64,000 nt of DNA from Natronospirillum operosum. GTDB taxonomy: Bacteria > Pseudomonadota > Gammaproteobacteria > Pseudomonadales > Natronospirillaceae. The stretch is from the NCBI RefSeq assembly GCF_004768465.1, contig NZ_SRMF01000006.1, positions 62,001-126,000 of the forward strand, in the 5' to 3' direction. The notes below the pieces were generated by a model. It did no database searches, was not told the DNA's origin, and worked only from the letters and a program-made list of their open reading frames with translations. The translations under genes were made by a program, and so were the position numbers. Below are positions 20,113 through 30,342 of this stretch, one piece after another (positions within the stretch are counted from its first letter, which is position 1; each line of letters starts with the position of its first letter).

Positions 20113-20216
20113 CGGGGTTGGGTAGGCCTGTGCGAGGGCGTCTGCGGGAGGGATCCCGCAGCCGAGCCTACAGGGATGTATTCACGGCGTCCCTCGCACA
20201 GGCCTACCCCACCCCG
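20113..20216. repeat. Giant palindrome, copy 1 (26-nt arms, 52-nt core)
   Basis: Left arm 20113-20138 and right arm 20191-20216 pair at 25 of 26 positions. They enclose a 52-nt core (20139-20190) with its own perfect hairpin CTGCGGGA-GGGA-TCCCGCAG and an ending ACGGCGT. The core recurs almost unchanged at 20415-20466, but the arms there have a different sequence and length. It starts about 40 bp after the nrdA stop and would fold as one long hairpin in the nrdAB transcript. Confidence 0.85.
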
Positions 20217-20384
20217 AACCTCTGACCAGCGCCAACTGCAGGATCAGGGTGGACTACAACGGTTACACCATATGCATACAGAATAGGCAGACAACTACTA
20301 ATCGCAGCAGTCAGAACATGTCGTCCTGATTGCGACATCAAAGAATTTAACGCGGCTCCTCTGGCTGTAGATGGTTGGAGGACA

Positions 20385-20496
20385 GGCCTGAGTGAGGGGA
20401 GCCTCTGGGGTGGGCGTCTGCGGGAGGGACCCCGCAGCCGAGCCCCCATGGATGGGTTTACGGCGTCCCACCCCAGAGGCTCCCCTCACTCAGGCC
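20385..20496. repeat. Giant palindrome, copy 2 (perfect 30-nt arms, 52-nt core)
   Basis: Left arm 20385-20414 and right arm 20467-20496 are perfect complements over 30 nt. The 52-nt core (20415-20466) matches copy 1 at most positions, including the hairpin CTGCGGGA/CCCCGCAG and the closing ACGGCGT. The arms differ from those of copy 1. The right arm ends 33 nt before the nrdB start, leaving its ribosome site free. The stretch between the two copies (20217-20384) shows no gene or further repeat. Confidence 0.88.
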
Positions 20497-20529
20497 GGCA
20501 AGCAGCCACAGAGAAGAACGGAGACAGAT

Positions 20530-21717
20530 ATGTTGGATTGGAATGCACTGGAAGACGATACAGCGGTTGCAGACAAGCCGCAGCCAGAACAACCGGCGCC
20601 TGAGGTCACGACACAGGCGAGTGACGTCAACCAGCAGGTGCAGGCCGAGCTGGAGCGGCTGGATGTAGCCGCCGGTCTGGAGGAACTGGACATGAATGCC
20701 GGCCGGGTCGAGGTGGACGACAAGCGCATGATCAACTGCCGCGCCGACCTCAACCAGTTGGTGCCGTTCAAGTACGAATGGGCCTGGCAGAAATATCTGG
20801 CCGGCTGTGCCAATCACTGGATGCCGCAGGAAATCAACATGAGCGCGGACATCCAGCTGTGGAAAAGCGACTCGGGGCTGACCGATGACGAGCGGCTGAT
20901 CGTCAAACGCAGCCTGGGGTTTTTCTCCACCGCCGACAGCCTGGTAGCCAACAACCTGGTACTGGCCATCTACCGGCTGATCACCAACCCCGAATGTCGC
21001 CAGTATCTGCTGCGCCAGTCGTTCGAGGAGGCCATTCACACGCACGCCTACCAATACTGCATCGAATCTCTGGGCATGGATGAAGGCGAAATATTCAACA
21101 TGTACCGGGAAGTGCCGAGTGTAGCCAAAAAAGCCGCCTGGGGTCTGAAGTACACCCAGACGCTGGGCGACCCGAGCTTTCAGACCGGCACACCCGAAAA
21201 CGACCGGGAACTGCTGCGCAACCTGATCGCCTTCTACTGTGTACTGGAAGGCCTCTTCTTCTATTGTGGCTTTGCACAGATTCTGAGCATGGGGCGGCGC
21301 AACAAGCTGACCGGGGTCGCCGAGCAGTTCCAGTACATCCTGCGTGATGAAAGCATGCATGTGAATTTCGGCATTGATGTGATCAATCAGATCAAGGTTG
21401 AAAACCCGCATCTGTGGGACCACGCCATGCAGCAGGAAGCCACCCGCATGATCATGGAAGGCTATGAACTGGAAGCCGCTTATGCGCGGGACACCATGCC
21501 GCGTGGTGTGCTGGGCATGAATGCCGAGCAGATGAGCGAATACCTGCGCTTCATCAGCAACCGGCGGCTGCAGCAGCTCGGACTCAGCGAAGCCTACCCT
21601 GGCGCCGGCAACCCCTTCCCCTGGATGGCGGAGATCATGGACCTGAAGAAGGAGAAAAATTTCTTCGAGACCCGGGTCACCGAATACCAGGTGGGCGGGG
21701 CTCTGTCATGGGACTGA
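20530..21717 (+). CDS. nrdB: Class Ia ribonucleoside-diphosphate reductase, beta subunit
   Basis: The 395-residue radical-generating subunit. The di-iron and radical site EAIHTHAY shows Glu-x2-His followed by the Tyr that carries the radical. That Tyr separates it from class Ic proteins, which have Phe there. A second Glu-x2-His is in [12 protein letters not shown] 20530 is preferred (GGAG 7 nt upstream; [10 protein letters not shown]). The frame is open upstream only because the palindrome contains no stop. The acidic N-terminal 60 residues are an extension. It overlaps the next gene by 10 bp. Confidence 0.96.
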
Positions 21718-28466: not shown

Positions 28467-29297
28467 TCAGGCCGTCAGACGCCCTGACTGGAAGTCCTGA
28501 ATGGCCTGTTCGATTTCTTCCACCGTGTTCATCACGAACGGGCCATACTGCACCACCGGCTCGTTGAGCGGCTGACCGCCCACCAGCAGGCAGCCTGAGC
28601 CGCCTTTGGCTTCGAGCGCCACGGCTTCACCCGCACTCAGAATGGCCACTTCACCGGCACGAATCACCTGCTTGCCGACTGTAATGTCACCCTTGTAGGC
28701 ATAGACAAAGGCCGTGTGGTTCTCCGGCAGGCTGTTGCGGAAAACGCCATCCTCTTCCCAGCGTATATCGAAGAAGCGCGGCTGCGTAGCCACGCCGCTG
28801 ACCGGGCCGACCTTGCCGTTCAACTCACCGGCCAACACGCGTACCACACCGGCGTCGAAGTCGGTTTCGGGTACGTCTTCAGCCGGAATGTCCTGATAAC
28901 GCGGGTCGGTCATCTTGTCCTTCGCCGGCAGATTGACCCAGAGCTGGAAGCCCCACAGCATGCCGTTTTCCTGCTGCGGCATCTCTTCGTGAATAATGCC
29001 CCGCCCGGCCGTCATCCACTGAATCGAACCTGGCCCGAGGTAGCCTTCGCTGCCCATGTGGTCACGGTGGCGCACACTGCCCTCGATCAGGTAGGTCACT
29101 GTTTCAAAGCCCCGATGCGGGTGGCTGGGAAAACCGGCGATATAGTCGTTGGGGTCGTCCGACTTGAATTCGTCCAGCATCAGAAAAGGGTCAACCCGCT
29201 GCAGATAGGGGCTGCCGATAATGCGTGACAGGCTGACACCGGCCCCATCCTGGGTGGGCATGCCCTTGGCCAGGCGGCTGACAGTACGTTCGCTCAT
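28467..29297 (-). CDS. Pirin-family protein
   Basis: A 276-residue bicupin protein. The metal-binding motif of the N-terminal cupin is visible (FPSHPHRGFETVTY, then HRDHMGSEG and IIHEEMP), with the three His and the Glu that bind iron in pirins. The start at 29297 (MSERTVSRL) has a strong GAGGAGGT site 9 nt upstream; an in-frame codon 45 nt earlier has none. Pirins include quercetinase-like dioxygenases and regulatory partners. It is divergent from a LysR regulator across 142 bp, its probable controller. Confidence 0.92.
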   Translation of the reverse strand: MSERTVSRLAKGMPTQDGAGVSLSRIIGSPYLQRVDPFLMLDEFKSDDPNDYIAGFPSHPHRGFETVTYLIEGSVRHRDHMGSEGYLGPGSIQWMTAGRGIIHEEMPQQENGMLWGFQLWVNLPAKDKMTDPRYQDIPAEDVPETDFDAGVVRVLAGELNGKVGPVSGVATQPRFFDIRWEEDGVFRNSLPENHTAFVYAYKGDITVGKQVIRAGEVAILSAGEAVALEAKGGSGCLLVGGQPLNEPVVQYGPFVMNTVEEIEQAIQDFQSGRLTA

Positions 29298-29439
29298 GGT
29301 GACTACACCTCCTCGGTTGGCCGGGAAACCCGTCCCCGACATTCAATTCAACAATTGCCACAGTACGGATGTGCTGTCCGCTTGCATAACGAAATTAACT
29401 GGCAGATGATTTCAAAAAGACTGAATAAACGGAGATTCC

Positions 29440-30342
29440 GTGGCCCACAACCCCATAACCGTCGAGCTGATTCGCACCCTGGATGCCATTGATCGTCACG
29501 GCAGCTTCGCGGCAGCAGCGGAACATCTGCACAAGGTACCCTCGGCCCTGACCTATACGCTGCAGAAGTGCGAGCGGGATCTGGAGATAAAGCTGTTCGA
29601 CCGCAGCGGCCATCGGGCGGAATGGACCGAAGCCGCCCGACACATTCTAAGCGAGGGCAGACGCATCCTGGTGGCCATGGAGAATCTGGGCCACAGCGCC
29701 CAGCGCCTGGCGCAGGGCTGGACCACACAGTACGTAGTGGCACTGGACCATCTGCTCGACTTCGAACAGATAGTGCCGCTGCTGACCCGGGCCCACGAGG
29801 ACATTCCCTGGGTGCCGGTGCATGTGCGTCAGGGCACCCTGTCCGGCACCTGGGAACTGCTGCTGGAGCACGAGGCAGACCTGGTCGTCGCCCCACTGCA
29901 TTCCAAACCGGACGCCGGCAACATCGAGACCCGGCCCATCGGCACCATCCGCATGGTACTGGCGGTGGCGCGTGACCACCCGCTGGCGGCAGTCGACCGC
30001 CCCCTGACCGAAGACGACCTGCTGCCCTACCCCGTGGTCACCAATCAGGACACCGCGCGCCAGATCACCCCGCTGACCGCCGGTCTGCGCCAGCGGCGAC
30101 AGCAGTTGCTGGTACCGGATATGAGTACCAAGATCCTGGCCCAGAAGCGTGGCCTGGGCATCGGCTTTCTGCCCATGCACCGCATCCAGCAGGAGGTGTT
30201 GGGCGGCGACCTGATACTGAAATCACTGGCCAGCAATGACCAGGAACGGGAGATGACGCTGGTGGCGGGTTGGCGGCAGGGCGACAGCGACAAGACACAC
30301 CACTGGATGCTGGAGCATCTGGAGTTGTTGTCAATCAATTAA
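29440..30342 (+). CDS. LysR-family transcriptional regulator
   Basis: A 300-residue regulator. The N-terminal winged helix-turn-helix (IRTLDAIDRHGSFAAAAEHL, then PSALTYTLQKCERDLEIKLF) is typical of LysR proteins, and the remaining 210 residues are the periplasmic-binding-protein-like effector domain. It begins with GTG, supported by GGAG 5 nt upstream. It is divergent from the pirin gene, the normal arrangement for a LysR protein and its target. The effector is not predictable. Confidence 0.93.
   Translation: MAHNPITVELIRTLDAIDRHGSFAAAAEHLHKVPSALTYTLQKCERDLEIKLFDRSGHRAEWTEAARHILSEGRRILVAMENLGHSAQRLAQGWTTQYVVALDHLLDFEQIVPLLTRAHEDIPWVPVHVRQGTLSGTWELLLEHEADLVVAPLHSKPDAGNIETRPIGTIRMVLAVARDHPLAAVDRPLTEDDLLPYPVVTNQDTARQITPLTAGLRQRRQQLLVPDMSTKILAQKRGLGIGFLPMHRIQQEVLGGDLILKSLASNDQEREMTLVAGWRQGDSDKTHHWMLEHLELLSIN

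What the first reader, a model, noticed from the sequence alone, without database searches (positions are those of the whole stretch)
20113..20496. Two giant palindromes with a shared 52-nt core but unrelated, self-complementary arms in the nrdA-nrdB gap
Both elements have a 52-nt core that is nearly the same, with an internal CTGCGGGA hairpin and an ACGGCGT end. The arms differ in sequence and length (26 and 30 nt), yet within each copy they pair at 25/26 and 30/30. An ordinary mobile repeat carries its arms with it. Here the arms look newly made at each site, as if insertion of the core copied the flanking target in inverted form, or as if pairing alone is selected. Both also sit in one mRNA and could set the NrdA:NrdB ratio or act as RNase III sites.
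Basis: partly seen in the sequence, partly recalled or inferred. Interest (0 to 1): 0.78.

Follow-up and report, generated by a model that had tools for sequence, protein, structure and literature searches.

The report
Dispersed two-GGA-hairpin RNA repeats (TwoAYGGAY-like)
The two giant palindromes between the ribonucleotide-reductase genes are copies of a folded-RNA repeat found in about a fifth of sampled Gammaproteobacteria; each copy displays two loops that match the binding site of the global regulator CsrA, and its arms keep pairing while their sequence changes, as in other structured RNAs.

Summary
In detail: palindromes at 20113-20216 and 20385-20496 share a 52-nt core (45/52 identical), with arms pairing at 25/26 and 30/30. 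The element is a dispersed intergenic repeat: about 20 model matches in this genome, found in 35 of 185 sampled Gammaproteobacteria; a sequence pattern found none outside that class. One strand folds as a three-way junction: P1 (the arms), P2 and P3. P2 and P3 stems vary by compensatory change, but both loops keep CANGGANG, the published CsrA/RsmA site. In P1, G.U outnumbers A.C mismatches 229:40 on the GGA strand, so that strand is the folded one. Relatives' copies match Rfam TwoAYGGAY (RF01731), an orphan motif already proposed to bind CsrA; window copies do not reach that model, so this is a divergent variant. Arms are inherited and co-evolve: two duplicated copies in this genome differ at 12 sites, and all 12 preserve structure and motif. 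The nrdA-nrdB gap holds such elements in three genera, with different arms and a flipped core. Neighbouring genes show no consistent orientation, so a purely cis-acting mRNA role is doubtful. CsrA binding is inferred, not shown.

The parts
20113..20216 (+). Element copy 1 (GGA strand = nrdAB coding strand)
   Evidence: model R1 102.9 bits
20113..20138 (+). Copy 1, 5' arm of helix P1
   Evidence: pairs 25/26 with 20191-20216
20142..20161 (+).
20169..20180 (+). Copy 1, hairpin P3, TACAGGGATGTA; fits A/UCANGGANGU/A and nearly all of RUACARGGAUGU
20191..20216 (+). Copy 1, 3' arm of helix P1
20385..20496 (+). Element copy 2; ends 33 nt before the nrdB ATG (20530)
   Evidence: model R1 101.3 bits
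20385..20414 (+). Copy 2, 5' arm of helix P1
   Evidence: pairs 30/30 with 20467-20496
20418..20437 (+). Copy 2, hairpin P2, loop AGGGAC closed by G-C
20445..20456 (+). Copy 2, hairpin P3, CCCATGGATGGG (loop CATGGATG)
20467..20496 (+). Copy 2, 3' arm of helix P1
17039..20074 (+). nrdA-like ORF upstream (true start may be 17249)
20530..21717 (+). nrdB-like gene downstream; the ORF listed from GTG 20392 only reads through copy 2
   Evidence: the G007 orthologue (87% identical) starts at the corresponding residue

Best explanation
Each palindrome is one copy of a dispersed, intergenic, structured-RNA repeat of the TwoAYGGAY type. SHOWN by comparison: the GGA strand folds as a three-way junction; the long arms are helix P1, whose sequence is free but whose pairing is kept by compensatory change; P2 and P3 are hairpins with varying stems and a constant loop, mostly C-A-N-GGA-N-G. 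INFERRED: the transcript of the GGA strand offers two CsrA/RsmA sites 23 nt apart, held in a fixed geometry by the junction, so one CsrA dimer could clamp both. Copies would then act as local CsrA docking sites where a transcript reads them in sense, as both do in the nrdA-nrdB gap with copy 2 ending 33 nt before the nrdB start, and together as a scattered CsrA-titrating pool. Copies are inherited and duplicated as whole units (often as head-to-head pairs), not assembled from the target.
For: Covariation: 90.3% of cells paired against 54.8% after shuffling, 32 of 35 pairs with double changes, covariation 0.879 against 0.206, slid controls at most 0.182. Strand: G.U 229 against A.C 40 in the arms on the GGA strand, p about 2e-33 if pairs are treated as independent. 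Loops: P3 reads C64 A64 N GGA N G63 of 65 distinct cores with all four bases at each N; P2 has GGA in 213 of 246 hairpins against 48 of 396 control hairpins, with C, A and G flanks in 138, 131 and 140 of 159 distinct hairpins. This is the consensus A/UCANGGANGU/A and nearly RUACARGGAUGU, both quoted in PMC6849547. In-genome duplicates: 12 differences = 4 compensatory pairs (8), 2 G.U/Watson-Crick exchanges, 2 N positions, in a duplicated stretch 90% identical. Link to RF01731: its hits G005:C1:3235870 and G012:C26:741071 are our copies on the same strand, and our model R1 in turn finds RF01731 loci in G010, G055 and G019, the best at 35 bits. CsrA is encoded in this genome and in all 58 genomes searched. 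A CsrA role for TwoAYGGAY was proposed before (PMC4333381).
Against: Neighbouring genes give no consistent orientation: 29 sense and 38 antisense among codirectional singles, with opposite biases in different genomes. The first element of the nrdA-nrdB gap is flipped in G007 and G008. CsrA is universal in the sample, so its presence cannot discriminate. No expression or binding data are held. The window copies do not match RF01731 itself. The only related family described as an expressed RNA, Ysr224 (RF02770), is annotated on the opposite strand. In both window copies P2 is closed by G-C and not C-G. The CsrA match was noticed after looking at the sequence, and the 43 aligned copies were partly chosen for paired inner arms.
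Confidence: 0.6

Rival explanations
1. A non-autonomous mobile DNA element (REP-, MITE- or attC-like) recognised as a folded single DNA strand by an unknown recombinase; the loops and junction are its recognition marks and it has no regulatory role.
For: Copies are nearly always intergenic (1 cluster inside a gene), in either orientation, in lineage-specific sub-families with shared arms, in head-to-head pairs (11 '-+', 0 '+-'), once in a tandem array of about 227 bp, and one is missing from the congener G001. A preference for G.T over A.C would also fit a folded DNA strand.
Against: Arms differ between copies, unlike the fixed ends of a MITE. Pairing is maintained between duplicates after duplication and apparently over genus distances at one site, which a recognition need at the time of movement alone would not require. 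No Y1/RAYT transposase is flanked by a copy (20 loci). No match in the phage or plasmid collections.
Confidence: 0.27
2. Arms are made de novo at each insertion by copying the flanking target in inverted form.
For: Most own-genome arms are not detectably related between loci.
Against: Arms are shared between loci in many genomes. Duplicates diverge by paired substitutions. The G001 site shows neither arm.
Confidence: 0.03
3. Arm pairing is kept by template-switch correction of quasi-palindromes during replication, without selection for folding.
For: Long quasi-palindromes are known to be corrected this way (own knowledge); arms here reach 30 or more perfect pairs.
Against: It predicts equal G.U and A.C mismatches, but 229 against 40 were seen, in the same direction in every genome group with data; P2 and P3 co-vary too and keep constant loops.
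Confidence: 0.05
4. Intrinsic terminators or RNase III / mRNA-stability hairpins acting at the RNA level from either strand, without a loop-binding protein.
For: Very stable hairpins; in G427 and G055 most copies lie antisense, next to the 3' end of a gene; nrdA-nrdB gap occupied in three genera irrespective of core orientation.
Against: No T tract on either strand. Constant GGA loops on one strand are not needed for RNase III or termination.
Confidence: 0.05

Closest known systems
TwoAYGGAY RNA motif (Rfam RF01731; Weinberg 2010 PMC2864571; CsrA proposal in PMC4333381)
   Same: Two hairpins with ANGGAN-type loops inside a poorly conserved outer stem; same strand; RF01731 hits in G005 and G012 are our copies; reported from Gammaproteobacteria among others.
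   Different: Window copies do not reach RF01731 even at E 10; loops are ANGGAN rather than AYGGAY (G as common as T at the first N); junction GAGCC...ACGGCGT; many copies per genome in intergenic regions.
Ysr224, Yersinia sRNA 224 (Rfam RF02770)
   Same: Contains the same core; Yersinia similis copies score 127-130 bits.
   Different: Modelled on the opposite strand with a different structure; window copies reach only 29-31 bits against a cut-off of 70.
CsrA/RsmA-titrating sRNAs (CsrB RF00018, RsmZ RF00166)
   Same: GGA-loop hairpins fitting the same consensus.
   Different: Two sites instead of many, dispersed in many copies, no terminator; those families themselves do not reach their cut-offs in the genomes tested.
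REP/BIME repeats, GTAG and CGTC families (Di Nocera 2013, PMC3733652)
   Same: Dispersed intergenic palindromes, head-to-head pairs; CGTC precedes P2 in the window.
   Different: About 110 nt instead of 20-40; no GTAG tag; no AT-starting stem or CCA tail of CGTC REPs; not next to RAYT genes.

Membership tests
TwoAYGGAY (RF01731) | Two hairpins with A-Y-GGA-Y terminal loops in one structure | tested here: inconclusive
   Two ANGGAN loops, but the first N is G about as often as T, so AYGGAY in the strict sense is met only by some copies
TwoAYGGAY (RF01731) | Outer stem, poorly conserved in sequence | tested here: met
   P1 pairs in 89% of cells with all 22 pairs doubly changed
TwoAYGGAY (RF01731) | Covariance-model score at or above 43 bits | tested here: not met
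   Window copies unlisted at E up to 10, none in the own genome at 0.01; two sibling copies in relatives matched at 33-39 bits
TwoAYGGAY (RF01731) | Tandem G.A pairs in one stem (reported in PMC4333381) | not tested
   Not examined
CsrA-binding RNA | GGA in a hairpin loop within A/UCANGGANGU/A | tested here: met
   P3 of copy 1 in full, P2 in most copies of the family (in the window P2 is closed by G-C)
CsrA-binding RNA | CsrA encoded in the genome | tested here: met
   G000:C1:347485-347643, 67-aa frame; universal, so weak
CsrA-binding RNA | Expressed and bound by CsrA | not testable with these tools
   No RNA-seq or CLIP data held
REP repeat / RAYT element | Copies flank a Y1 (RAYT) transposase gene | tested here: not met
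   0 of 20 Y1 loci carry a copy within about 1.5 kb
CGTC REP | 8-9 bp stem starting with A-T pairs, 4-5 nt loop, CCA tail | tested here: not met
   P2 stems start with any pair, loop is NGGA-type, no CCA tail seen
MITE | Terminal inverted repeats of constant sequence | tested here: not met
   Arms unlike between loci in the own genome except within duplicates
Intrinsic terminator | T tract after the hairpin | tested here: not met
   No T excess downstream (18%, background 23%); A upstream 27% against 24%
Ysr224 (RF02770) | Score at or above 70 bits | tested here: not met
   31.3 and 29 bits on the minus strand

The most novel reading that the evidence does not exclude
A mobile or duplicating RNA module that scatters paired CsrA docking sites through gammaproteobacterial genomes, so that the copies jointly form a CsrA sponge and locally place new genes (such as nrdB) under Csr control wherever they are transcribed in sense.
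Probability: 0.3. Interest if true: 0.85.

Novelty: new variant of a known kind. Interest (0 to 1): 0.6.

Why it matters
If the inference holds, a global regulator's binding site has been packaged into a dispersed element carried by about a fifth of sampled gammaproteobacterial genomes, tens of copies in some, which would rewire Csr regulation each time a copy arises. Even without CsrA, the strand-specific G.U excess and the paired substitutions between duplicates give an orphan Rfam motif a firm three-way-junction structure, a functional strand, a host range and many copies for testing.

Tried and rejected
Core sequence in papers: none. Phages and plasmids: none. Rfam miRNA matches to the window are taken as chance matches to long hairpins. 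RAYT association: none. Terminator reading: no T tract. Promoter-like conservation between paired copies was looked for by eye and not seen. A universal sense orientation in mRNA, the simplest CsrA model, was tested twice and not found. Known Csr sponge families as a contrast gave only sub-threshold hits. In the nrdA-nrdB gap of G007 and G008 no empty site exists; the congener G001 has no detectable nrdB of this type.

Full report
WHAT IS THERE. Searches confirm both palindromes in the 455-nt gap between nrdA (ends 20074) and nrdB (ATG 20530). Each has arms around a 52-nt core; the arms pair 25/26 and 30/30. RNA folding gives -81.7 and -98 kcal/mol (z -7.3, -10.0). The two cores differ at 7 of 52 positions; by reading, four of these are two compensatory pairs in hairpin P3, two are at the free N of each loop motif, and one is a T/C in TTY.

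IT IS A REPEAT FAMILY. A 62-nt core query finds further copies in the genome; a covariance model built here gives 21 matches (at most 22 candidates scored). Nineteen of 58 genomes searched carry the core, some with dozens of candidates. A pattern scan finds it in 11 of 299 Pseudomonadota, all Gammaproteobacteria; the model finds it in 35 of 185 Gammaproteobacteria. Named carriers include Stenotrophomonas, Rheinheimera, Marinobacter, Methylotuvimicrobium, Halopseudomonas, Yersinia similis and Pantoea. One relative (G020) shares its contig length with Saccharospirillum sp. M30B14, so the window's family is probably Saccharospirillaceae.

STRUCTURE AND STRAND. A gapless alignment of 43 copies under the structure P1 + CGT/ACG + P2 + P3 has 90.3% of cells paired, 32 of 35 pairs with double changes, and covariation 0.879 against 0.206 in shuffles and 0.157-0.182 in slid controls. 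These copies were partly chosen for paired inner arms, which favours P1 but not P3. With a separate detector whose arm score treats both mismatch kinds alike, arms hold 229 G.U and 40 A.C on the GGA strand (203 and 51 with another method). A G.U on one strand is an A.C on the other, so without folding of one strand the two should be equal. The GGA strand is therefore the one whose fold is kept. This suits RNA best; a folded DNA strand is not excluded.

THE LOOPS. In 65 distinct P3 cores outside the exact-pattern set, the loop is C(64) A(64) N GGA N G(63); in 159 distinct P2 hairpins it is mostly C-A-N-GGA-N-G while the stem takes many sequences. P2 loops hold GGA in 213 of 246 cases against 48 of 396 control hairpins. 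The published Rsm/CsrA consensus is A/UCANGGANGU/A and the CsrA SELEX consensus RUACARGGAUGU (quoted in PMC6849547). The two GGAs lie 23 nt apart in the window.

ARMS ARE INHERITED AND CO-EVOLVE. On contig C29 two head-to-head pairs of copies are duplicates (duplicated stretch 90% identical over 328 nt). The first copies of the two pairs differ at 12 of 102 positions: 10/93, 16/87, 17/86 and 33/44 are compensatory double changes, 13 and 82 exchange G.U and Watson-Crick, and 37 and 41 are the N positions of the loop. All 12 keep structure and motif. Across G016 the arms share an outer theme (GYGCC...GGCRC) with paired variation. Own arms pair much better than arms swapped between copies.

THE nrdA-nrdB GAP. 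In G007 (NrdB 87% identical) the gap holds two elements and in G008 one. In G007 the nrdB-proximal copy is in sense and, as in the window, ends 33 nt before the nrdB start; the first element is in the opposite orientation in both G007 and G008. Flank and outer-arm similarity suggests, but does not prove, descent from one ancestral element with core flips; a plain alignment of the three gaps is weak outside the genes. For another copy (C12:471573) the congener G001 has a much shorter gap with neither arm; the site is too diverged to decide between gain and loss.

CONTEXT. Over 12 genomes, codirectional single copies are 29 sense and 38 antisense, convergent 13, divergent 14, similar to background; one of all clusters is inside a predicted gene. 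Clusters are '-+' 11, '++' 2, '--' 1, '+-' 0. Bias differs by genome (G427 3:18, G055 1:8, G016 7:2 sense:antisense). Gene calls are by a home-made hexamer method. No T tracts, no RAYT neighbours.

COMPARISON. RF01731 TwoAYGGAY hits in relatives include our copies at G005 and G012 on the same strand. Our model finds RF01731 loci in G010, G019 and G055, weakly except in G010. The window copies themselves are missed by RF01731. I therefore call it a divergent variant of that kind, not a certified member. Gardner and Eldai already proposed that TwoAYGGAY binds CsrA (PMC4333381); what is added here is the gammaproteobacterial family, its strand, covariation, copy structure and paired evolution. 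RF02770 Ysr224 contains the same core on the opposite strand.

JUDGEMENT. Structured repeat of TwoAYGGAY type: about 0.9. CsrA/RsmA binding by its two loops: about 0.55-0.6. Purely selfish folded-DNA element: about 0.27. The lack of a consistent orientation to genes is the main unexplained fact for the RNA model.

Noticed in passing
G000:C29:26991-27314 and 29275-29593 (L282): Two duplicated head-to-head pairs of the element about 2.3 kb apart, with a predicted gene between them; 12 of 12 differences between the first copies preserve structure and motif.
   Followed up: yes
L283 (G244:C1:92000-98000): Tandem array of at least six copies with a period of about 227 bp.
   Followed up: no
L106, L128, L150, L071, L036, L156: Copies in which the hairpin upstream of P3 reads CATCCATG-like, as if P2 alone had been inverted or belonged to a neighbouring opposite copy.
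   Followed up: no
L073, L109 (Yersinia similis): Rfam RF02770 Ysr224 covers this element but models the strand opposite to the GGA strand; the family may be mis-stranded or describe an antisense transcript.
   Followed up: partly
G427 (L307-L326), G055 (L175-L194), G016 (L215-L229): Orientation of copies to neighbouring genes is strongly biased in opposite ways in different genomes (18:3 and 8:1 antisense against 7:2 sense).
   Followed up: partly
G035: This relative encodes nine CsrA-like proteins and carries dozens of element candidates.
   Followed up: no
window 20392-20529: The longest ORF for nrdB reads in frame through the second palindrome from a GTG; homology places the start at ATG 20530.
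   Followed up: yes
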